From Micromonospora humi (GTDB lineage Bacteria; Actinomycetota; Actinomycetes; Mycobacteriales; Micromonosporaceae), in contig NZ_FMDM01000001.1 in the NCBI RefSeq assembly GCF_900090105.1, positions 496,001 through 560,000 of the forward strand: a stretch of DNA of 64,000 bases, in the 5' to 3' direction. Positions 39,229 to 59,192 of the stretch are shown here, one piece after another; the first letter of the stretch is position 1; the number at the start of each line of letters is the position of its first letter. A program made the translations under genes and the position numbers. A model generated the notes under the pieces. That model did no database searches, had not been told where the DNA came from, and was given only the letters and a program-made list of their open reading frames with translations.

Positions 39229-40230
39229 ATGGCGCGCCTGATCGGCTGGGTCGTCACCAATCTCGACGCGTTCATCGGTCTGGTGCTGGCCGTCACGGTC
39301 GCGGTCCTGGGCCTGACCAACACGGTCAGCCAGGACGTGGTCAACAGCGCCATCCTGCTGGTCCTCGGCCTGCTCGCGCAGGCGGTGCTGCGCGACCGGC
39401 TGCGCCGCCGCACCGCCGAGCAGGAGGTCCGCCAGGTCATCGTGGACACCCGGGAGCGGCTCACCGACCTGGTGCCGCCGATGCGCGAGCTGACCGGCCC
39501 GGAGGGTGCGCTGAGCCGGGCCCGGGAGGCGATCCACAGCTCCTCCATGGTGCGGGTGCTGCACGGCAGCGAGGTCGGCCAAGCGCTCGCCGAGGCGCGT
39601 CAGCACACCGACCGGTGGGACTTCAAGGGCGGCACCGGCACCTACCTGCGCGCGGTCACGCTGCCCGAGTGCCTCAAGCTGGCCCGCCGGCGCAACGCCA
39701 CGCTCACCGTCGCCGTCGAGATCATCGACCCGACCGACGAGGAGGTCTGCGAGCGGTACGCGCGTTTCCGGCGCAGCCTGGAGTCGGACGAGCCGACCGA
39801 GCCGTGGACGGTCGACCGCACCCGCAAGGAGTCGTACGCGACGGTGCTCGCCGCCTGCTGGTACGCGCAGCGCTCCGGCCTGCTCACGGTCGACCTGCGG
39901 CTCACCGCGCAGATGACCACGTTCCGCTACGACCTCTCCTCCTCCTGCGTGGTCATCACCCAGGAGAACCCGCAGACCCCGGCGCTGCGCATCGACCGCG
40001 GCGAGGTCTACTACAACCGGTTCACCATCGAGCTGGACTACAGCCGCCGGCAGAGCCGGCGGGTGCCGATCGAGTCCGCCGGTCAGGTCCGGCTCGACGA
40101 CGAGCCGTCGGTCGAGCAGGTGCGTCGGCTGTTCACCGCGCTCGGCCTGGCCCTGCCCCGGTCCTTCGGCGACCGGGAGGTCGCCGACGTCGTGCGCAAG
40201 GCCCTCCAGGCGAGGAACCCCTACACATGA
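39229..40230 (+). CDS. Unrecognised membrane-anchored protein, first gene of a three-gene unit
   Basis: 333 residues. Two hydrophobic segments near residues 4-25 and 33-52 leave most of the protein on one side. The soluble part begins with a coiled, charged stretch (LRRRTAEQEVRQVIVDTRERLTD), then a conserved-looking domain with VRVLHGSEVG, WDFKGGTGTYLRAVTLPECLKLARRR, VEIIDPTDEEVCERYARFRRS and a beta-rich C-terminus. I do not recognise the family. Its stop overlaps the next gene's ATG (ATGA), and a CysQ-like phosphatase gene follows, so these three likely work together, perhaps on a phosphorylated small molecule. Confidence 0.75.
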   Translation: MARLIGWVVTNLDAFIGLVLAVTVAVLGLTNTVSQDVVNSAILLVLGLLAQAVLRDRLRRRTAEQEVRQVIVDTRERLTDLVPPMRELTGPEGALSRAREAIHSSSMVRVLHGSEVGQALAEARQHTDRWDFKGGTGTYLRAVTLPECLKLARRRNATLTVAVEIIDPTDEEVCERYARFRRSLESDEPTEPWTVDRTRKESYATVLAACWYAQRSGLLTVDLRLTAQMTTFRYDLSSSCVVITQENPQTPALRIDRGEVYYNRFTIELDYSRRQSRRVPIESAGQVRLDDEPSVEQVRRLFTALGLALPRSFGDREVADVVRKALQARNPYT

Positions 40231-40880
40231 CGAGCTACGCCGACCTGGAACGGGAGATCGACCGGGGCACCCGGCCGGAGCTGCTGCGCGACTGGGTGCT
40301 CGGCGTGCTCGGCGACGTCGCCGACGGGCGGCGGCCGCTGCGGGCGGTCCGGCACCCGCTCGGCTTCACCTGCCTGCCGGTGGAACGCGACGGCCCGGAC
40401 GGGATCTGCGTGCACGCCTGGCCGGCCGAGCCGCCGCCGGTGCGCCCGAGCACCTCGGCCATGCACTCGCACAGCTGGGACCTGCTCAGCCACGTGCTGT
40501 ACGGCACGGTCCGCAACGAGCTGATCGACGTCACCGACACGCCCGCCGACCCGTCCTGGCGGGTCTACCAGGTGCACAGCCTCGGCGAGGTCGACGAGGT
40601 GGCCGCCACCGACCGGTTGGTCACCGCGACGACCGCGACAGTGGAGACGCACGCCGCGGGCGACTCGTACGCGCTGCGCGCCGGTGGCTTCCACACCTCG
40701 GAGGTGACCGCCGGCGCGCCCGCGGTCACCGTGGCGCTCGGCCGGACCACCCCCGGCGCGTGCGACCTGAGCCTCGGCGCGGTGGACGGACGCAGCCACC
40801 GGGTACGCCGGGACCGCTGCGACGCGGCGGAGACCGCGCGGATGGCGCGACAGATCGCGCGACTGGTGGCACGGGGCTGA
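40227..40880 (+). CDS. Cupin-like metalloprotein (unknown family)
   Basis: 217 residues, no signal or membrane segment. A cupin-style metal site is suggested by MHSHSWDLLSHVLYG (three His within twelve residues) and a later GFHTSEV, as in cysteine-dioxygenase-like or isomerase cupins. The N-terminal DWVLGVLGDVADGRRPLRAVRHPLGFTCLP region has no match I recognise. Translationally coupled to the upstream membrane gene and 21 bases before the IMPase-like gene. Confidence 0.7.
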   Translation: MTSYADLEREIDRGTRPELLRDWVLGVLGDVADGRRPLRAVRHPLGFTCLPVERDGPDGICVHAWPAEPPPVRPSTSAMHSHSWDLLSHVLYGTVRNELIDVTDTPADPSWRVYQVHSLGEVDEVAATDRLVTATTATVETHAAGDSYALRAGGFHTSEVTAGAPAVTVALGRTTPGACDLSLGAVDGRSHRVRRDRCDAAETARMARQIARLVARG

Positions 40881-40901
40881 CTGGCTGGAGGAGCCGTGGA
40901 C

Positions 40902-41798
40902 GTGGAGCCGAACAGAGACGCGCCCGACCTGCGCGACGCGCACCGGTTCGCGGTGCAGGCGGCCCGGGCGGCCGGCCGGCTGCTGCGCCGTGGCGTCCGG
41001 GGTGAGGTGCACGCCCGGGCCAAGGACGACTCCGGCGACCTGGTCACCGACCTCGACCTGGCCGCCGAGCGGCTGATCGTCGACCGGATCCGGGCCCGCT
41101 GGCCGGAGCACGGGGTGATCGCCGAGGAGGGCGGCGAGTACGCGCCGGACACCACCTGGGCGTGGCTGGTGGACCCGCTCGACGGCACCAACAACGTGGC
41201 GATCGGGCTGCCCGCGTACGTGGTCGGCATCGCGCTGTGCGAACGCGGCTCCCCGGTGCTCGGGGTGGTGCACGACCCGATCGCCGGCCGAACGTGGTCC
41301 GCGGTCCGCGGTCAGGGCGCCTTCGTGCACGGCGCCGACCTGGTCGGGCACCCGCTGCGCGCCGCGCGCCGGCCGGTGCCGGCCGCGCCGGTGCTGGCCT
41401 GGACCCAGGGGCACGGGGTACGCCGGGACGACAGCACCGCCCGGGCGTTGAAGGTCGTCCTCGACACCACCGCCCGCCGGGTGCTGCAACTGTGGGCGCC
41501 GCTGCTGGCCTGGGTGATGCTGGCCCGGGGCGACATCGACGGGATCGTCGGCTACCGCCCCGAGGCGGTCGACCTGCCGGCCGGGGTGCTGCTGGCCGCC
41601 GAGGCCGGGATGGCCGTGCGCGCGCTGGACGGCGGCACGTTCGACGACCGGTACGGCTGCCCGGCGGACCGGCGCAGCTTCGTGGCCGGCCCGCCGGAGA
41701 CGATCGACCGGCTGGTCAAGCTGGTCACCGCGGCACAGTGGATCGAGCCGCAGGTGCGCCGGCTGACCCCGGTCAGTCTGGGCTCGGTCGGTTGGTGA
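40902..41798 (+). CDS. Inositol monophosphatase/3'(2'),5'-bisphosphate nucleotidase family (CysQ-like)
   Basis: A 298-residue Mg-dependent phosphatase: motif DLVTDLDLAAERLI (metal), EEGGEYAP (metal Glu), WAWLVDPLDGTNN (metal and phosphate), and the late VDLPAGVLLAAEAG. The family removes phosphate from inositol-1-P, PAP/PAPS or histidinol-P; target not resolvable. GTG at 40902 is preferred to 40896 because the GGAGGAG site is then eight bases away. Third gene of the unit. Confidence 0.88.
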   Translation: MEPNRDAPDLRDAHRFAVQAARAAGRLLRRGVRGEVHARAKDDSGDLVTDLDLAAERLIVDRIRARWPEHGVIAEEGGEYAPDTTWAWLVDPLDGTNNVAIGLPAYVVGIALCERGSPVLGVVHDPIAGRTWSAVRGQGAFVHGADLVGHPLRAARRPVPAAPVLAWTQGHGVRRDDSTARALKVVLDTTARRVLQLWAPLLAWVMLARGDIDGIVGYRPEAVDLPAGVLLAAEAGMAVRALDGGTFDDRYGCPADRRSFVAGPPETIDRLVKLVTAAQWIEPQVRRLTPVSLGSVGW

Positions 41799-52081: not shown

Positions 52082-53329
52082 TCACGCGCCCGGGCCGACC
52101 AGCAGTGCGGCCACGGTGCACGCGGTGGCCAGCGCGGCCAGCGCGGCGCTGGTGGCCACGAACCGGCCCAGCGGCACCGTCAACCCGGCCGCCCGACACC
52201 GCTCGTACCAGATCAGCGTGGCCAGCGACGCCCACGGCGTGGCCAGCGGGCCGACGTTCGTGCCGATCAGCAGCGCCAGCAGCTGGGTGTGCCGGTCGGC
52301 GGCGATGACCGCCTCGCCGGCCACGTACGCGGGCAGGTTGTTGACCACGTTGCTGAACAACGCGCCGACGGCACCCGCCCGCAGCGCGCCCTCCGCGCCC
52401 GGGTCGGCGCCGATCAACGCGCCCATCACCGTGTCCAGCCCGTGCCGGCCGATGGTCTGCACGACCAGGAACAGCCCGGTGACGAACACGAGCAGCCGCC
52501 ACGGCACCAGCGCCGGGCGCAGCCGGTGCCGGGCCCGCACCGCGAAGCCGGCCACCAGGATCGCGGCGGCCACCGCCGAGGCGACGCCGATCTCGACGCC
52601 GGCCAGCACCCCGGCGACGAAGAGCAGGCAGGCGACCAGCGCGGTCCGGTAGACCAGGCGGTCCGGCGGCACGTACGGCGGCGGCGGGACGAACGGATCG
52701 GCGCCGGCCCGGGCCGGGCGCCAGTACCACCACCACAGCAGCAGCATGGTGATGGCGATGGCGACCAACTGCGGCCACCACATCCGGGCCGCCCATGGCA
52801 CCGGGGCCAGCCCGATCCGGTCGCTGGCCAGGATGTTGGTCAGGTTGGACACCGGCAGCAGCAGGCTCGCGGTGTTGGCCAGCCAGACCGTGGTCATGGC
52901 CAGCGGCGTCGCCGGCACGTTCAGCGTCCGGGCCAGGGCGATCATCACCGGCGTCAGCAGCACCGCCGTGGTGTCCAGGTTGAGGGCGATCGTGGTCACC
53001 GACGCGAAGCCGACGCAGAGCCAGAACAGCGCCCGGAAGCTGCCCCGCGCGGTGATCGCCACCCGGGCGGCGAGCGCGTCGAAGACCCCGGCCACCGCGG
53101 TCAGCTCCGCCAGCACCACCACGGTGCCGAGGAAGATCAGGATGGGCACGATACGGCGTACGGTGGCCTCGGCGTCGGCGCGCGGCAGCAGCCCGGTGAG
53201 CACGCAGAGCACGCCGACGACGGCCAGCGCGATCGCGATCCAGTCCAGCACGTGCAGGCGCCGACGGGGCCGGTCCGGCGCGGCGGACGGCGGTTCGCCG
53301 ACGGTCTCCACGAACGCTGATCCTCGCAC
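52082..53329 (-). CDS. ArsB/SLC13-type ion permease
   Basis: 415 residues with about 11 membrane segments; paired family motifs TIALNLDTTAVLLTPVMIALAR and VVNNLPAYVAGEAVIA resemble ArsB/NhaD (IT superfamily) carriers. Probably exports an oxyanion or exchanges cations; substrate unknown. GTG at 53329 begins the open frame; GTG at 53314 (VETVGEPP) is an alternative. Divergent from the TIR protein gene. Confidence 0.85.
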   Translation of the reverse strand: MRGSAFVETVGEPPSAAPDRPRRRLHVLDWIAIALAVVGVLCVLTGLLPRADAEATVRRIVPILIFLGTVVVLAELTAVAGVFDALAARVAITARGSFRALFWLCVGFASVTTIALNLDTTAVLLTPVMIALARTLNVPATPLAMTTVWLANTASLLLPVSNLTNILASDRIGLAPVPWAARMWWPQLVAIAITMLLLWWWYWRPARAGADPFVPPPPYVPPDRLVYRTALVACLLFVAGVLAGVEIGVASAVAAAILVAGFAVRARHRLRPALVPWRLLVFVTGLFLVVQTIGRHGLDTVMGALIGADPGAEGALRAGAVGALFSNVVNNLPAYVAGEAVIAADRHTQLLALLIGTNVGPLATPWASLATLIWYERCRAAGLTVPLGRFVATSAALAALATACTVAALLVGPGA

Positions 53330-53403
53330 ATCCGGCCCCGGCCGGTCCGGCCCGACGCGATCGTCACGTCGAGCTGCCGACGGTGTCGATCTGTTGACCG
53401 TCG

Positions 53404-53420
53404 GTGGTCATAATGACCAC
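53404..53420. promoter_or_regulatory. 17-bp palindrome over the -10 of the TIR-NACHT gene (candidate operator)
   Basis: Perfect palindrome GTGGTCAT-A-ATGACCAC, ending one base before the start codon. The -10 box CATAAT (53409-53414) lies within it, and the start codon is six bases past the box, so the transcript is leaderless. A bound repressor would fully block the promoter. The -35 region is weak (TGTCGA at 53384-53389). Confidence 0.75.
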
Positions 53421-56400
53421 GTGGCTGTAGGCGCGCACCCCACCCGGTCCGACCGCCCCATCGACTTCTTCATCAGCTACTCACCGGCCGACGAACGGTG
53501 GGCGACGTGGCTGGCCTGGGAGTTCGAGAAGGCCGGCTACCGCACGATGATCCAGGCGTGGGACTTCGTCGCCGGCACCAACTTCATCGACTTCATGGAC
53601 CGCGGGGTCCGCGAGGCCGAGGTGGTGGTGGCGGTGCTGTCCGAACGCTACCTGCACTCGACGTACGGCAAGCTGGAGTGGCAGGCGGCGTTGCGCGCCG
53701 ACCCCGACGGCACCGGCAACAAGCTGGTCACCGTGCGGGTCGAGGACTGCCCGATCGACGGCCTGCTCGCCACCATCACCTACGTCGACCTGGTCGGGGT
53801 GGACGACCCGGCGCAGGCGCGCGCCCGGGTGCTGAACCGGATCCGCGAGACGCTCGACGGCCGGGCCAAGCCGATGCGCCAGCCCGTGTTCCCGCTGCAC
53901 CTCGACGACCCCGCCGACGTGCTGGCGGCACCGGTCGCGGGCGCGCCGGCGCAGCGCCGCCCCCGGCGTACCCCGATCAACCCGCCGCCGTTCCCGCCGG
54001 CCGCGACCGCGCCGCCCACGGCCCGCGACACCGTCACGGTGCTGCAGGTGGGCGGGCCCCGTTTCGGCCGCGGGGTGATCGAGCCGGGCGCCCCGGTCAC
54101 GCCCGGCGAGTTGCAGGAGCACCTGATGGGTGACCTGACGCTGCTGATGAACGACGGGGTGCCCCGCCCGGATCTGCTGGTGGTGGCCGGCAACCTGACC
54201 GAGTCGGGCAGCCCGCGCGAGTTCTCCGACGCGCTGAGCTTCCTCACCGGGCTGCGGGTGCTGCTCGGCCTGGAGCCGCACCGCCTGGTCGTGGTGCCCG
54301 GCCCGCGCGACGTGACGATGGCCGCCTGCCGGGCCTACTTCGCCACCTGCGAGGCCGACGACGTGGACCCGCAGCCGCCCTACTGGCCGAAGTGGCGGCA
54401 CTACGCGCGCCTCTTCGACGACCTGTTCCAGGGCCTCGAGGACCGGATCTTCGACAGCGAGCAACCGTGGACGCTGTTCCCGGTGCCCGACCTGCGGGTG
54501 GTGGTGGCCGGGTTGAACTCGACGATCGCCATCACCCACCGCGAGGAGGACCGCTACGGCTTCCTCGGCGAGGCGCAGTCGAGCTGGTTCGCCCAGCGGC
54601 TGCGCCACTACCAGCAGTCCGGCTGGCTGCGGCTGGGCGCGATGGCGCACGCGCCGGGCCCGCGCAGCCCGTACGCCGACGAGGCCCCACCGGACCGGGT
54701 GTCGCTGCGCGACCGCGGTTCGGTCAACCGGCTGGTCGGCCCGATGCTCAACCTGCTGCTCTCGGACGCCGCGCCGGCCGGCCGGGCCGACCCGGTGGTG
54801 CCGCTGGCCGCCGCCCCGCGCGACGGCCGGGCCCAGGTGCTGCGTCTCGGGGCGGACGGGATGACCCGCTGGGTGCTCGGCCGCGACGACCGGCTGGACG
54901 GCGGCGAGTCCACAGTGGTGGCGTGGCCGCGGGCCGACGCGACGTTCGGCGCGGCCGGCCCGGCGCAGGTGCCGGATCCGCGTCGTCCCGCCGAGGTCGA
55001 GGGCGCCACCCGGCGCGAGGCCACGCCCGCGGCCGGGACGCCGGTGGAGCGGCTGCTCGACCGGCTGGCCGAGGTGTGCGAGGCGCGCTACGACCGGGTG
55101 GTGGTGCGCCGGGTCGAGGCCGACCCGCCGCACCTGTACGTCAGCTACCGCTCCGACGGCGTGGTGCGCCAGCAGCGGGTCGGCGCGCACGTCGGCACCC
55201 CGGCGCCGGCCGACCTGGACCGGTTCGCCCGCCGGGTGCACGCCGCCGACCCGGACATCGCCTCCGAGCTGGTCTACGACGGCGACCGGGTGCCGCGCGG
55301 GCTGGCCGAGGAGGCGCAGCGGCGCGGCGTGCGGGTGCTGCACCTGACCGAGTTCCAGGGCCTGCTCGACCTGCGCGACTACGTCGCCGCGCAGACCGCC
55401 CGGCTCCAGGCCGACCGGCTCTACCCGCCGGGGCAGTACGTGCCGCAGCGCTACCGGCACCTGGTCGGCGCCGACCAGCGGGTCCGCGACGACGTGGTGG
55501 ACGAGCTGCTGGAGACCGTCTCCGCGCCGGACGGCCGGTTCGTGCTGGTGCTCGGCGACTTCGGGCGGGGCAAGACGTTCGCGTTGCGCGAGGTGGCCCG
55601 CCGGCTGCCGACCGCCGCGCCGGACCTGATCCCGATCCTGGTGGAGCTGCGCGCGCTGGACAAGGCGCACTCCGTCGACGGCCTGGTCGCCGCGCACCTG
55701 GCTAACCACGGCGAGCAGGTGATCGACCTCAAGGCGTTCCGCTACATGCTGCGACAGGGCCGCATCGTGCTGCTCTTCGACGGGTTCGACGAGCTGGTGG
55801 CCCGGGTGACCTACGACCGGGCGGCCGACCACCTGGAGACGCTGCTCCAGGCCGCCGACGGCGCGGCCAAGATCGTGGTGAGCAGCCGGACCCAGCACTT
55901 CAAGACCAACTCGCAGGTGCTGACCGCGCTGGGCGAGCGGGTCGGGCTGCTGCCGCACCGCCGGGTGCTGGCCGTGGAGGACTTCACCCCCGGCCAGATC
56001 GAGGCGTTCCTGCGCAACCGCTACGGCGGTGACGAGCAGGCCGCCCGGGAGCGGATGACCCTGCTCGGCGGCGTCAAGGACCTGCTCGGCCTCTCCCGCA
56101 ACCCGCGCATGCTCGGCTTCATCGCCAACCTGGACGAGGGCCGGTTGGCCGCGGTGGCCGGTGCCGGCGGCACGTTCAGCGCCGCCGCGCTCTACCGCGA
56201 GATCCTGGAGTCCTGGCTGGACTTCGAGGAGCGGCGTACCCAGGGCATCCCGGGGGCGCCGGTCAGCCTGCGCCGGCCGGAGCTGTGGCAGGCGGTGAGC
56301 CGGCTGGCGTTCCAACTCTGGGAGAGCGGCGAGGCCTACCTGCGGCTGGCCGAGCTGGCCGAGTCCACCGGCCAGCTCGCCGGGCGGGCCGACTCGCGGC

Positions 56401-59192
56401 TGTCCGGGCCGCAGGCCACCCACGCGGTCGGCGCGGGCAGCCTGCTGGTCCGCACCGACGACGGGCTGTTCGGCTTCATCCACACCTCGGTGATGGAGTG
56501 GCTGGTCGCCGAGGGCGTGGCCGAGCAGCTCAACCGGGGTGAGGAGCCGGCCGCGCTGGCGGTGCGGTCGTTGTCCGCGCTGGCCGTGGAGTTCCTCGGT
56601 GACCTCGCCGACCCGGCCCGCTGCACGGCGTGGACGGCCCGGGTGCTCGGCGACGAGGCGGCCGGCGAGACGCTGCGGGCCAACGCGCTGCGGCTCAGCG
56701 CCCGGCTGCGCCTGCCCGACCGGGCGGACCTGCGCGGCGCGGTGCTGCGCGGCGAGGACCTGTCGCACCGGGAGCTGGCCGGCGCCGACCTCACCGGCGC
56801 CGACCTGACCGACACCCGGCTGGTCGCCACGAACCTGACCGAGGCGCGGCTGGAGCACGCCCGGCTGCGCGGCGCCCGCCTGGACCAGGCCCGCCTGTCC
56901 GGGGCGGACCTGCGCGGCGCGGAACTGGCCGGCGCCCGGCTGTTCCGGGCCGACCTGCGTGGGGCGCGGATCGCCGGCAGCAGCTGGCACCGCACCGCGC
57001 TGATCGACGTCAGCGCCGACCCGGCGACGCTGCGCGCGCCGGAACTGCGCGGCGCCGTGGTCGCGCCGGGCCGCCCGGTGGCGCCCGGCCTGGCCCCGCC
57101 CGCGGTGGGCGTGGGGTACGGCTTCGAGGTGGGACGCCTGCCGGTGCCGGTCGCGTACAGCCCGGACGGTGCGGTGCTGGCGGTGGGCAGCGACGACGGT
57201 GGCGTGCTGCTCTGCGACACGGCCACCGGGTTGCCGGTGCGCACCCTGCCGGGACACCGGTCCCGGGTCTACGCGGTCCGCTACGACGCCGCCTCGCACC
57301 AGTTGGTCACCGGCGCGGCCGACCTCACCGTGCGGCTGTGGGACGCCGACCACGGCGACGTGCGGCACGTCATCGAGGACGTCTTCGCCGGCTGGGTCTG
57401 GCCGCTGCTCACCGACGGGCGCCGAGGGCGGCTGGTGGTCGGCGACGCGGCCGGCGTGGTCCGGCTCTTCGACACCCGCACCGCCCGGCTGCGGCACGAG
57501 TGGCCGGGGCACGTCGCGCCGATCTGGGGCACCTCGTTCAGCCCGGACGGCCGGCGGGTGGTGGTGGCGGACAGCGCCGGCACGGTGCGCGGCTGGGACA
57601 TCCACACCGGCCGGCAGGCGTTCGAGGTGCGCGAGCCGGAGGTGGTCTACCGGGTGGTGCACTCACCGGACGGGCGACTGCTGGTCGCCGTCGGGCAGCA
57701 CGGCCGGGTGTGGATCCGCCGGGCCACCGACGGCGAGCTGCTGCGCCAGCCGCGCGGCCACGAGGCCGACGTGTACGCGCTCGACGTCAGCCCCGACGGC
57801 ACGCTGATGGCCACCGGTGACACGCACGGCGCCCTGCGGCTGTGGGAGACGGAGACCGGCCGGCCGGTGCGGGTGCTCGGCCGGCAGCGTGGCGCCATCT
57901 ACAGCGTCCGGTTCAACGGCGACGGCAGCCTGCTCGCCACCGCCGCCAGCGACGGCGCGATCCAGCTCTGGGACACCGCCGACGGTCAGGTGCGGCACGA
58001 GCTGACCCGGCACCGCGGCTCGGTCTGGCCGGTGGTCTGGCGGCCGGACCAGAACCAGGTCGCGACCAGCAGCAACGACGGCACCACCCGGCTGTGGGAC
58101 GTGCACACCGGGCAGCTCCAGCACACGTTGCGCGGGCACGGCCGGCGGGTCACCGCGCTCTCCTTCCGCGACGACGGGGAGGTGCTGGCGGCGTGCGGCA
58201 ACGACGGCGTGATCCGGCTCTGGGAGCCGCGTACGGGGCGCCTGCTGGGGCAGCTCGCCAGCCCGGCCGACCGCCTGCTGTCGGTGGTCTTCTGCCCGGA
58301 CGAGCCGCTGGTCGCCACGCCCAGCGGCGACGGCGGCGTGCACCTGTGGAACACCGACACGGGCGCCGACGAGCGGGAACTCAACGTGGACACCGACCAC
58401 GTCTGGGCGGTCGCGTTCAGCCCGGACGGCGACGCGCTCGCGACCGCGAACGACGACGACACCGTGCGGCTGTGGTACCGCCGTACCGGCCGGCACTTCG
58501 CCACGCTCACCCCGCACCGGGGGCGGGTGCGCACGGTGGCGTTCAGCCCGGACGGCGAGACCATCGCCACCGGCTGTGACGACCAGATGGTCCGGCTCTG
58601 GGACGCGGCCACCGCCACCTGCCGGCTGACCCTGGAACACCACACCGACCGGGTCTACTCGGTCGGGTTCAACAGCGAGGGGACGCTGTTGGCCAGCGCC
58701 GGCAACGACGGCACGGCGGTGATCTGGGACGTGGCCACCGGCGAGCGGCGCCTCGTGCTCGACGAGCACGTCGGGCGGCTCTGGTCGTGCGCGTTCAGCC
58801 CGGACGGCAACCTGCTCGCCACCGCCGGCGACGACCTGGTGATCCGACTCTGGGACCCGGTCACCGGCCGGCTGCACGGCACCCTGGCCGCGCACACCCG
58901 GCGGGTGTGGTCGGTGCACTTCAGCCCGGACAGCAGCCTGCTCGCCAGCGCCGGCGACGACGGCACGGTCCGGCTGTGGGACGTGGCGGACCCGGAGCAC
59001 GCGCAGTTGCGGACCACGCTGATCGGCCTGGCGGACGGCTGGGCGGCGGTGAGCCCGGACGGCCGGTACAAGCTGGACGGCGACCCGGGTGGCCAGTTCT
59101 GGCACGTCATCGGCACCTGCCGCTTCGAGGTCGGCGAACTGGACCCCTACCTCACCCAGGTCCGCCGCCTGGCCGTCGACGCCCCCTTCTGA
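53421..59192 (+). CDS. TIR / metallophosphoesterase-like / NACHT-STAND / pentapeptide / WD40 multidomain protein (putative immune sensor)
   Basis: 1,923 residues. Residues 13-150 are a TIR_2 domain (DFFISYSPADE, QAWDF, catalytic Glu86 in KLEWQAAL). Residues about 203-420 follow a metallophosphoesterase fold but lack the usual ligands (GNLTESG at 257 and GPRD at 294 replace GD and GNHD). Residues 541-690 form an unrecognised domain. NACHT Walker A is GDFGRGKT (Lys718), Walker B LLFDGFDE (Asp787-Glu791). Pentapeptide repeats span about 1102-1190, then 15 WD40 blades (42-residue period) from about 1244 to the end. TIR enzymes of this class cleave NAD+; STAND proteins sense a trigger with their repeats. 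The inferred role is anti-phage or stress-induced cell death. GTG start fits the leaderless promoter. Confidence 0.9.
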   Translation: MAVGAHPTRSDRPIDFFISYSPADERWATWLAWEFEKAGYRTMIQAWDFVAGTNFIDFMDRGVREAEVVVAVLSERYLHSTYGKLEWQAALRADPDGTGNKLVTVRVEDCPIDGLLATITYVDLVGVDDPAQARARVLNRIRETLDGRAKPMRQPVFPLHLDDPADVLAAPVAGAPAQRRPRRTPINPPPFPPAATAPPTARDTVTVLQVGGPRFGRGVIEPGAPVTPGELQEHLMGDLTLLMNDGVPRPDLLVVAGNLTESGSPREFSDALSFLTGLRVLLGLEPHRLVVVPGPRDVTMAACRAYFATCEADDVDPQPPYWPKWRHYARLFDDLFQGLEDRIFDSEQPWTLFPVPDLRVVVAGLNSTIAITHREEDRYGFLGEAQSSWFAQRLRHYQQSGWLRLGAMAHAPGPRSPYADEAPPDRVSLRDRGSVNRLVGPMLNLLLSDAAPAGRADPVVPLAAAPRDGRAQVLRLGADGMTRWVLGRDDRLDGGESTVVAWPRADATFGAAGPAQVPDPRRPAEVEGATRREATPAAGTPVERLLDRLAEVCEARYDRVVVRRVEADPPHLYVSYRSDGVVRQQRVGAHVGTPAPADLDRFARRVHAADPDIASELVYDGDRVPRGLAEEAQRRGVRVLHLTEFQGLLDLRDYVAAQTARLQADRLYPPGQYVPQRYRHLVGADQRVRDDVVDELLETVSAPDGRFVLVLGDFGRGKTFALREVARRLPTAAPDLIPILVELRALDKAHSVDGLVAAHLANHGEQVIDLKAFRYMLRQGRIVLLFDGFDELVARVTYDRAADHLETLLQAADGAAKIVVSSRTQHFKTNSQVLTALGERVGLLPHRRVLAVEDFTPGQIEAFLRNRYGGDEQAARERMTLLGGVKDLLGLSRNPRMLGFIANLDEGRLAAVAGAGGTFSAAALYREILESWLDFEERRTQGIPGAPVSLRRPELWQAVSRLAFQLWESGEAYLRLAELAESTGQLAGRADSRLSGPQATHAVGAGSLLVRTDDGLFGFIHTSVMEWLVAEGVAEQLNRGEEPAALAVRSLSALAVEFLGDLADPARCTAWTARVLGDEAAGETLRANALRLSARLRLPDRADLRGAVLRGEDLSHRELAGADLTGADLTDTRLVATNLTEARLEHARLRGARLDQARLSGADLRGAELAGARLFRADLRGARIAGSSWHRTALIDVSADPATLRAPELRGAVVAPGRPVAPGLAPPAVGVGYGFEVGRLPVPVAYSPDGAVLAVGSDDGGVLLCDTATGLPVRTLPGHRSRVYAVRYDAASHQLVTGAADLTVRLWDADHGDVRHVIEDVFAGWVWPLLTDGRRGRLVVGDAAGVVRLFDTRTARLRHEWPGHVAPIWGTSFSPDGRRVVVADSAGTVRGWDIHTGRQAFEVREPEVVYRVVHSPDGRLLVAVGQHGRVWIRRATDGELLRQPRGHEADVYALDVSPDGTLMATGDTHGALRLWETETGRPVRVLGRQRGAIYSVRFNGDGSLLATAASDGAIQLWDTADGQVRHELTRHRGSVWPVVWRPDQNQVATSSNDGTTRLWDVHTGQLQHTLRGHGRRVTALSFRDDGEVLAACGNDGVIRLWEPRTGRLLGQLASPADRLLSVVFCPDEPLVATPSGDGGVHLWNTDTGADERELNVDTDHVWAVAFSPDGDALATANDDDTVRLWYRRTGRHFATLTPHRGRVRTVAFSPDGETIATGCDDQMVRLWDAATATCRLTLEHHTDRVYSVGFNSEGTLLASAGNDGTAVIWDVATGERRLVLDEHVGRLWSCAFSPDGNLLATAGDDLVIRLWDPVTGRLHGTLAAHTRRVWSVHFSPDSSLLASAGDDGTVRLWDVADPEHAQLRTTLIGLADGWAAVSPDGRYKLDGDPGGQFWHVIGTCRFEVGELDPYLTQVRRLAVDAPF

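What the first reader, a model, noticed from the sequence alone, without database searches (positions are those of the whole stretch)
53421..59192. Single-gene TIR-STAND-WD40 immune-like sensor with a metallophosphoesterase-like module
One 1,923-residue frame combines a TIR_2 domain with intact catalytic Glu86, an MPE-like fold, an unassigned 541-690 domain, a NACHT NTPase with intact Walker A and B, pentapeptide repeats and 15 WD40 blades. Known bacterial TIR and STAND proteins in phage defence pair an effector with a sensor repeat; having TIR as effector and 15 WD blades as sensor in one chain, with an MPE-like module between, is a plausible new variant.
Basis: partly seen in the sequence, partly recalled or inferred. 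Interest (0 to 1): 0.88.

Follow-up and report, generated by a model that had tools for sequence, protein, structure and literature searches.

The report
TIR immune-like receptor with companion genes
This bacterial gene encodes a large alarm protein that looks able to destroy the cell's NAD when its sensor is triggered; it carries two worn-out enzyme domains as structural parts and tends to travel with companion genes, so it is probably one piece of an undescribed system.

Summary
Three things change the reading. (1) The MPE fold is real (AlphaFold model closest to Rv0805) but empty: 0 of 8 ligand residues remain, and 89 of 92 TIR-MPE proteins (window included) keep 3 or fewer. The 'unassigned' domain is Pfam NA-iREase3, an inactive restriction-endonuclease fold. 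(2) MPE, iREase and NACHT form a core whose head is swapped: TIR, trypsin or HTH; in 5 of 5 HTH-headed genomes the TIR is in a separate nearby TIR-MPE gene. (3) It is not a lone gene. A divergent ArsB/CitMHS-like transporter adjoins 67 of 68 close relatives, and an operon (pseudo-phospholipase-D, cupin-like, inositol-monophosphatase-like) travels with it: IMPase in 40 of 41 Micromonospora carriers and 0 of 119 others; in Streptomyces 12-13 of 14 carriers against 0-3% of others. The WD40 part is not hypervariable; none of ten window neighbours is a convincing defence gene. Best reading: an NLR-like TIR switch on a pseudo-enzyme scaffold inside a conserved actinomycete cassette. Phage defence is possible but unshown.

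The parts
53421..59192 (+). TIR-pseudoMPE-iREase-NACHT-pentapeptide-WD40 receptor gene (1,923 aa)
   Evidence: Open frame; Pfam; 77 related loci
53466..53825 (+). TIR_2 domain, residues 16-135, Glu86 kept
   Evidence: Pfam TIR_2 2.3e-34; Glu in 76 of 80 rows
54024..54890 (+). Metallophosphoesterase fold, residues ~202-490, 0 of 8 ligand residues kept
   Evidence: AlphaFold and Foldseek/VIA: Rv0805; ligand score
55047..55373 (+).
   Evidence: Pfam PF22739 1.6e-35
55536..56018 (+). NACHT NTPase, residues ~706-866, Walker A at 715, Walker B at 784
   Evidence: Pfam NACHT 1.8e-9; motifs
56718..57059 (+). Pentapeptide repeats, residues ~1100-1213
   Evidence: Pfam Pentapeptide 1.7e-22
57147..58988 (+). 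15 WD40 units, residues 1243-1856
   Evidence: Self-built blade model; Pfam WD40
52082..53329 (-). Divergent ArsB/CitMHS-like transporter, 91 bp from the receptor start
   Evidence: Pfam CitMHS 1.2e-30, ArsB 4.6e-22; adjacent and divergent in 67 of 68 testable close loci
39229..40230 (+). M325: protein with an N-terminal helical hairpin (probably two TM helices) and a PLD-like fold lacking HKD; cassette gene
   Evidence: AlphaFold/Foldseek; HxKxxxxD in 0 of 65; cassette
40227..40880 (+). CUP: cupin-like protein; ATGA overlap with M325
   Evidence: cassette
40896..41798 (+). IMP: inositol-monophosphatase-family protein, motif DPLDGT
   Evidence: Pfam Inositol_P 1.6e-43; co-occurrence

Best explanation
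An NLR-like STAND receptor. Inferred mechanism: at rest the WD40 propellers hold NACHT in the ADP state; a ligand releases it, NACHT exchanges nucleotide and oligomerises, and the clustered N-terminal TIRs cleave NAD+, killing the cell or making it dormant (or making a nucleotide signal). The dead MPE and inactive REase folds are non-catalytic scaffold or adaptor modules that hold the swappable effector head on the NACHT ring. The gene works with a cassette (pseudo-PLD, cupin-like, IMPase, divergent transporter) whose two intact-looking enzymes probably make, remove or report the ligand or the TIR product. The sensor is probably tuned to an invariant, possibly endogenous, cue. Shown: domains, residue losses, head swapping, and co-occurrence of the cassette. 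Inferred: oligomerisation, NADase activity, what is sensed, and what each partner does.
For: Domains and intact TIR/Walker residues. MPE fold with 0 of 8 ligands; 89 of 92 TIR-MPE proteins, window included, keep 3 or fewer, yet other MPE positions are strongly conserved. Head swapping: of 137 family proteins 92 are TIR-MPE-iRE-NACHT, 30 MPE-iRE-NACHT, 13 TIR-iRE-NACHT, 2 iRE-NACHT; Trypsin_2 in four and HTH in two heads submitted to Pfam. HTH-headed receptors have a nearby TIR-MPE gene in 5 of 5 genomes. Cassette in testable close loci: TR 67/68, IMP 59/67, CUP 59/66, M325 54/64; Micromonospora IMP in 40 of 41 carriers, 0 of 119 others; Streptomyces IMP 12 of 14 and 0 of 185, CUP 13/14 and 2/66, M325 13/14 and 1/66. 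Apart from antisense shadows, only cassette genes recur in three or more of my genus groups within about 8 kb. WD40 is as conserved as the MPE.
Against: No activity was measured. TIR domains can act as scaffolds only. Carriers within a genus may be one or a few clades, so the Fisher values overstate independence. In the window the operon lies 12-14 kb away; in 36 Micromonospora genomes with both on one contig the IMP-receptor distance runs from 2.8 to 42 kb. The transporter also occurs without the receptor: 12 of 185 receptor-negative Streptomyces, and close homologues in Micromonospora G099 and G123; its tree distances follow the others less well (0.60-0.73 over all loci, against 0.92-0.96 among the other four), and such correlation is expected from plain vertical descent as well. 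Relatives with the same core often lack the cassette: 0 of 10 trypsin-headed, 0 of 13 TIR without MPE, and among class-level TIR-MPE loci only TR 3/19, IMP 4/17, CUP 5/17, M325 4/16. Two TIR-fused relatives keep 8 of 8 MPE ligands (L207, L212), so the MPE is not dead in the whole family.
Confidence: 0.6

Rival explanations
1. A classical single-gene anti-phage STAND sensor: WD40 blades recognise a phage protein and TIR causes abortive infection; neighbours are bystanders.
For: Architecture like known bacterial NLRs and TIR defences (papers seen in passages); patchy presence, 14 of 199 Streptomyces and 44 of 160 Micromonospora genomes.
Against: Co-occurring cassette; no convincing PADLOC hit among ten window neighbours; WD40 not hypervariable.
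Confidence: 0.2
2. A physiological switch (developmental cell death or a metabolic/membrane stress sensor) that serves the IMPase-cupin-transporter module; the TIR output limits NAD under that stress.
For: Conserved neighbours, correlated tree distances of receptor, IMP, CUP and M325 (0.92-0.96), sensor not hypervariable.
Against: No substrate known; trypsin heads and a Trypco1 neighbour of one of them are typical of conflict systems (PMC7159879, passages).
Confidence: 0.3
3. The TIR is a signalling scaffold, not an NADase; the HTH-headed relatives show the family is mainly a transcription-factor family of the MalT kind (label recalled) that controls the neighbouring TIR-MPE gene.
For: HTH heads in one clade (100*, four rows) near TIR-MPE and CUP genes.
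Against: No HTH match in window residues 1-186; Glu86 is kept in all 76 in-frame TIRs of the N-terminal alignment; TIR is among the most conserved parts.
Confidence: 0.12
4. Passive synteny: the cassette is ordinary vertical gene order.
For: Within Actinomadura the flanks also share other genes (13 to 17 loci per cluster; by eye uvrB, coaE and others, not checked with Pfam). Correlated trees fit vertical descent.
Against: Across genus groups only cassette genes recur; IMP, CUP and M325 are largely absent from non-carriers; in G964 the receptor frame is interrupted, IMP is a fragment, and CUP and M325 are not found.
Confidence: 0.1

Closest known systems
Bacterial STAND/NLR-like proteins (eLife 2020 PMC7159879 and eLife 2021 PMC8195603, passages seen)
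   Same: Effector, STAND NTPase and superstructure repeats; TIR, trypsin and calcineurin-like domains named among effectors
   Different: Here the MPE is catalytically empty, lies behind the true head together with an inactive REase fold, and the gene has a specific cassette
Effector-associated domains (EADs) of PMC7159879 (section 30 read)
   Same: A second copy of a domain fused to an effector in a nearby gene (TIR-MPE next to HTH-MPE-iRE-NACHT)
   Different: MPE is large and of enzyme origin; the nearby copies are not each other's closest
Pfam NA-iREase3 (PF22739)
   Same: The domain at 543-651, 1.6e-35
   Different: The Pfam entry is a domain model; no description of this cassette or head swapping was found in searches
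Rv0805 and GpdQ phosphodiesterases; DNA polymerase delta/epsilon B-subunits
   Same: Calcineurin-like fold; the polymerase B-subunits (weaker matches, E 5e-3 to 4e-2) are, from recall, dead versions used as scaffolds
   Different: Here fused into an NLR-like protein
Swarozyc and human TEP1 (DUF4062; PMC13174449, passages seen)
   Same: TIR-like NADase domain before NACHT and WD40 in TEP1
   Different: Different TIR-like family; no MPE or iREase insert is mentioned in the passages seen

Membership tests
TIR NADase | TIR fold with catalytic Glu | tested here: met
   TIR_2 2.3e-34; Glu86 in 76 of 80 rows, the other four without in-frame TIR; that this Glu is the catalytic one is recalled
TIR NADase | NAD+ cleavage | not testable with these tools
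   Needs an assay
STAND/NACHT NLR-like receptor | NACHT with Walker A and B | tested here: met
   patterns found in 131 and 130 of 137 family proteins
STAND/NACHT NLR-like receptor | C-terminal repeat sensor | tested here: met
   15 WD40 units
STAND/NACHT NLR-like receptor | Ligand-induced oligomerisation | not testable with these tools
   Needs an experiment
Active metallophosphoesterase | Metal ligands DxH, GD, GNH, H, GHxH (recalled) | tested here: not met
   0 of 8 in the window protein
Calcineurin-like fold | Fold | tested here: met
   Rv0805 E 1.4e-10, TM by target 0.75; Z 19.7, rmsd 3.1, 216 aligned
NA-iREase3 | Profile over its cut-off | tested here: met
   122.7 bits against cut-off 27
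EAD adaptor | Second copy fused to an effector in an adjacent gene | tested here: met
   5 of 5 HTH-type loci, within about 2 kb and in some with one or two genes between; not seen in the window itself
EAD adaptor | Adjacent copies closest to each other | tested here: not met
   MPE tree
EAD adaptor | Small, no enzymatic features | tested here: not met
   About 290 residues, enzyme fold
Anti-phage defence system | Known defence genes nearby | tested here: inconclusive
   Ten window neighbours tested, only weak RmrA matches to one; other loci not tested
Anti-phage defence system | Protection against phage | not testable with these tools
   Needs an experiment

The most novel reading that the evidence does not exclude
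A dead phosphoesterase, backed by an inactive restriction-endonuclease fold, has become the docking module of an actinomycete NLR family: interchangeable TIR, protease or transcription-factor heads are mounted on it in cis, or a separate TIR-MPE protein docks on the receptor's MPE in trans. In the window's lineage it is the alarm of an undescribed five-gene cassette (receptor, transporter, pseudo-PLD, cupin-like, IMPase) that watches an invariant internal cue rather than a variable phage epitope.
Probability: 0.3. Interest if true: 0.88.

Novelty: new variant of a known kind. Interest (0 to 1): 0.74.

Why it matters
It would give bacterial NLR biology a testable case where pseudo-enzymes are the scaffold between sensor switch and effector, and a family where one core accepts several effectors. 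The cassette offers specific partners through which to ask what a conserved bacterial TIR-NLR senses and how its signal is made or cleared, a question that in my judgement is still open for most bacterial STAND proteins.

Tried and rejected
Tried and rejected. (a) MPE as active second effector: rejected for the window protein (0 of 8 ligands); kept open for L142, L149, L202, L207, L212 (8 of 8, counting Q for H at motif I) and the trypsin-headed L104 protein (7 of 8). (b) A simple rule 'TIR present means MPE dead': fails, since L207 and L212 have TIR and 8 of 8, and several TIR-less receptors are dead too. (c) EAD membership: one listed feature met, two not. (d) Conserved operator: GGTCATAATGACC at 53406-53418 is a perfect palindrome, but relatives keep a promoter-like block rather than the palindrome. 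(e) The transporter test in Streptomyces is weaker than IMP, CUP and M325 (10 of 14 against 12 of 185); up to nine candidates per genome were scored, so carriers may have been missed. (f) Literature: searches listed no paper that I recognised as describing the cassette; only open-licence papers are held and only the listed abstracts' beginnings were seen. Papers opened: PMC7159879, passages and its section 30; PMC8195603, PMC13174449 and PMC13236601, passages only; all others listings only. (g) Solved structures: only weak TIR matches (best 1.5e-4) and none for the NACHT stretch.

Limits of method. The trees are quick trees with SH-aLRT support only. ORFs were taken stop to stop, so N-terminal lengths before the first domain are uncertain. 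Trypsin and HTH heads were picked by motif; Pfam was run on four and two of them, and the trypsin motif count (His and Ser motifs in 11 of 11) is partly circular because such motifs helped to pick them. The 137 proteins were cleared only of copies identical over the last 600 residues; near-copies remain. dN/dS of two stand-alone TIR-MPE genes, 0.197/0.534 or about 0.37, includes untrimmed upstream codons. Genus groups were assigned by me from record titles (Kitasatospora and Streptacidiphilus counted with Streptomyces).
Full report
What is there. The finding's frame is real and intact: GTG at 53421, stop at 59190-59192, 1,923 residues. Pfam gives TIR_2 (16-135), NA-iREase3 (543-651), NACHT (about 706-866), pentapeptide repeats and WD40; a blade model built from the protein finds 15 WD40 units between 1243 and 1856, one of them partial. 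The genome is a Micromonospora by its closest named relatives; the window is on contig C17 of a 6.66 Mb assembly.

The MPE-like module. Sequence libraries barely see it (PhoD E 0.15; DS9_1 phosphoesterase 3.5e-11 but far under its cut-off). An AlphaFold model of residues 195-690 from 46 sequences (mean pLDDT 81.0, pTM 0.64) matches Rv0805 (E 1.4e-10, TM by target 0.75; Z 19.7, rmsd 3.1, 216 aligned). The fold is thus a calcineurin-like phosphoesterase. The residues that would bind metal are gone: in place of D, H/Q, D, N, H, H, H, H the window protein has G, R, N, P, R, A, A, P. Of 92 proteins with TIR and MPE, window included, 89 keep 3 or fewer, one keeps 5 and two keep all 8. The motif set, and which of two histidines in motif IV is the ligand, are recalled; the second histidine is kept in 79 of 80 rows. 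The iREase part gave only weak matches to restriction enzymes (AspBHI 6.8e-3, MspJI).

A core with swapped heads. Of 137 family proteins, 92 are TIR-MPE-iRE-NACHT, 30 MPE-iRE-NACHT, 13 TIR-iRE-NACHT and 2 iRE-NACHT. Some of the 30 are cut by contig ends or frame breaks (for example L042, L101, L197, L215). Pfam finds Trypsin_2 before the MPE in the four trypsin-like heads submitted and HTH in the two HTH-like heads submitted; by motif 11 proteins are trypsin-headed and 5 HTH-headed. MPE scores are 8, 8, 7, 5, 5, 2, 2, 2, 1, 0, 0 in the trypsin-headed and 5, 3, 2, 2, 2 in the HTH-headed set. Two long N-terminal regions (L138+, L151) and a shorter one (L150) match nothing in Pfam. A trypsin-headed receptor in L143 has a Trypco1 gene directly before it, a pairing like that described for conflict systems in PMC7159879. 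On an iRE-NACHT tree of 68 rows the HTH heads form one clade (100*) and trypsin heads lie in at least two places.

Distribution of the iREase domain. PF22739 was found in 21 of 150 genomes of the family, 37 of 394 of the class, 14 of 199 of the streptomycete genus and, in a thin draw over the phylum, in 1 of 296, the window's own genome; 0 of 14 control genomes matched.

The split form. In all five HTH-type genomes (G012, G097, G160, G243, G254) a separate gene of about 460 to 770 codons as called encodes TIR plus MPE and no NACHT, within about 2 kb of the receptor; in G160 a methyltransferase-like gene and the cupin-like gene lie between, and in G097 the match has a gap in the TIR part. All five also have the cupin-like gene next to the receptor. 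This resembles the effector-associated-domain principle of PMC7159879, but the MPE of the stand-alone gene groups with the TIR-fused MPEs (96*), not with its partner's, so one EAD criterion fails.

The cassette. Scanning the flanks of the loci (the best 80 of 98 matches, 77 distinct) showed a divergent transporter beside nearly every close relative. Among TIR-MPE loci with enough upstream sequence the counts are transporter 67 of 68, IMPase 59 of 67, cupin-like 59 of 66, M325 54 of 64. The eight loci without IMPase within 8 kb are seven Micromonospora and one Plantactinospora; in Micromonospora the operon can lie farther off, in the window 12-14 kb upstream. Against this stand the deeper samples: of TIR-MPE loci from class-level genomes 3 of 19 have the divergent transporter, 4 of 17 the IMPase, 5 of 17 the cupin, 4 of 16 M325; of two from the family draw 1 of 2 each; trypsin-headed (0 of 10) and TIR-without-MPE (0 of 13) receptors lack all four; of eight TIR-less 'unknown head' loci of the family draw three have the transporter and one a weak M325. 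In L095 (Frankia) and L204 the IMPase, cupin and M325 genes lie directly upstream on the receptor's strand, and in L199 and L201 the cupin alone does; in L095, L199, L201, L204, L208 and L215 a distant transporter homologue (32-34% identity) follows the receptor on the same strand. Within about 8 kb of the named loci, the only families found in three or more of my genus groups are the receptor, the transporter, IMP/CUP and M325, besides two clusters that by position are antisense shadows of CUP and IMP.

Co-occurrence. Micromonospora: 160 genomes examined; 44 match the MPE-iRE query, of which 41 have the close receptor and three have only distant types (G012, G097, G018); the IMPase orthologue (E <= 1e-80; the weakest hit is 2.6e-169) is in 40 genomes, all among the 41; the exception, G058, is an assembly of 990 contigs. 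Streptomyces: 199 examined; PF22739 in 14; IMPase at E <= 1e-60 in 12, all carriers. A closer look shows the thirteenth (G959) has the IMPase at 55% identity, under the threshold, and the fourteenth (G964) only a fragment; non-carriers were not looked at that closely. In a chosen set of 80 of these genomes (14 carriers, 12 transporter-only, 54 others) the cupin is in 13 of 14 and 2 of 66, M325 in 13 of 14 and 1 of 66. G964, without cupin and M325, also has an interrupted receptor frame; G959, with a complete cassette, has one as well, so frame breaks alone prove nothing. G1002 has M325 and a cupin side by side without PF22739. Carriers share ancestry, so these counts are not independent events. 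Tree distances of receptor, IMP, CUP and M325 correlate at 0.92-0.96 over the loci that have all genes, those with the transporter at 0.60-0.73; vertical descent alone can give this.

The partners. IMP belongs to Inositol_P (1.6e-43) and has DPLDG[TS] in 65 of 67; NCBIfam places it near several phosphatases without reaching any cut-off. CUP has no Pfam match in the window but HxHSW[DE] in 63 of 65 and an FH motif in 65 of 65, which I read as a cupin metal site; the only Pfam cupin match is a weak one to a relative (0.038). M325 has no Pfam match; its AlphaFold model (mean pLDDT 81.4, helical N-terminus 62-68) resembles the phospholipase-D fold (PssA 9.4e-5 with TM by query 0.33; Nuc 4.8e-3); two N-terminal helices look membrane-spanning by eye, and 0 of 65 have HxKxxxxD. 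The transporter matches CitMHS and ArsB but is far below ArsB cut-offs in NCBIfam.

How it most likely works. The anatomy fits an NLR: repeat sensor, NTPase switch, N-terminal effector. I infer that ligand binding frees NACHT to oligomerise, and that TIR proximity yields NAD+ cleavage. The MPE and REase folds are conserved as folds, in this lineage not as enzymes, and stay while heads change, which suggests a mounting platform. The sensor does not look diversifying: the mean minor-residue fraction over 28 cross-genus sequences is 0.27-0.29 for WD40 against 0.28 for MPE, 0.16 for NACHT and 0.15 for TIR. With a cassette that keeps two intact-looking enzymes, this favours an invariant cue, perhaps a metabolite the cassette handles. 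Phage defence remains possible.

Verdict. The protein is a new variant of bacterial TIR-NLRs; the pseudo-enzyme platform and the cassette are the new parts. I did not find it in print in the searches named, which cover open-licence papers only.

Noticed in passing
L147:4574-19900 (genome G165): Three trypsin-headed MPE-iRE-NACHT receptors in tandem, MPE scores 1, 0 and 0 of 8; a similar pair (2 and 2) in L153.
   Followed up: partly
L138:3130-5022 (+) and L151:2497-4635 (-): N-terminal regions of about 620-700 residues (stop to stop) before the MPE with no Pfam match; a possible further head type.
   Followed up: partly
L192, L193, L198, L200, L206, L209, L210, L213, L214, L216, L217, L222, L223: TIR-iRE-NACHT receptors in which the MPE model finds no MPE, so the MPE seems dispensable in some lineages.
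   Followed up: partly
L142, L149, L202, L207, L212: Relatives whose MPE keeps all eight ligand positions (with Q for H in motif I): candidates for an active phosphodiesterase.
   Followed up: no
L270:7296-8922 (genome G1002): M325 and CUP side by side in a Streptomyces without a PF22739 receptor; no receptor domain among the genes called in the 19.5 kb fetched.
   Followed up: partly
L095, L199, L201, L204, L208, L215: A distant homologue of the transporter (32-34% identity) follows the receptor on the same strand, so the transporter link may be older than the divergent arrangement.
   Followed up: no
window 53390-53430: Conserved promoter-like block (TTGAC ... CATAAT) ending about 6 nt before the GTG start in 15 aligned Micromonospora loci, suggesting a leaderless transcript; in the window it contains the palindrome GGTCATAATGACC.
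   Followed up: partly
window 53481-57662 (-): A 1,393-codon open frame antisense to the receptor; most likely a high-GC shadow.
   Followed up: no
L143:1455-15717 (genome G254): Cupin-like gene, HTH receptor, TIR-MPE, Trypco1 and trypsin receptor in one divergent cluster; the trypsin receptor's MPE keeps 7 of 8 ligands.
   Followed up: yes
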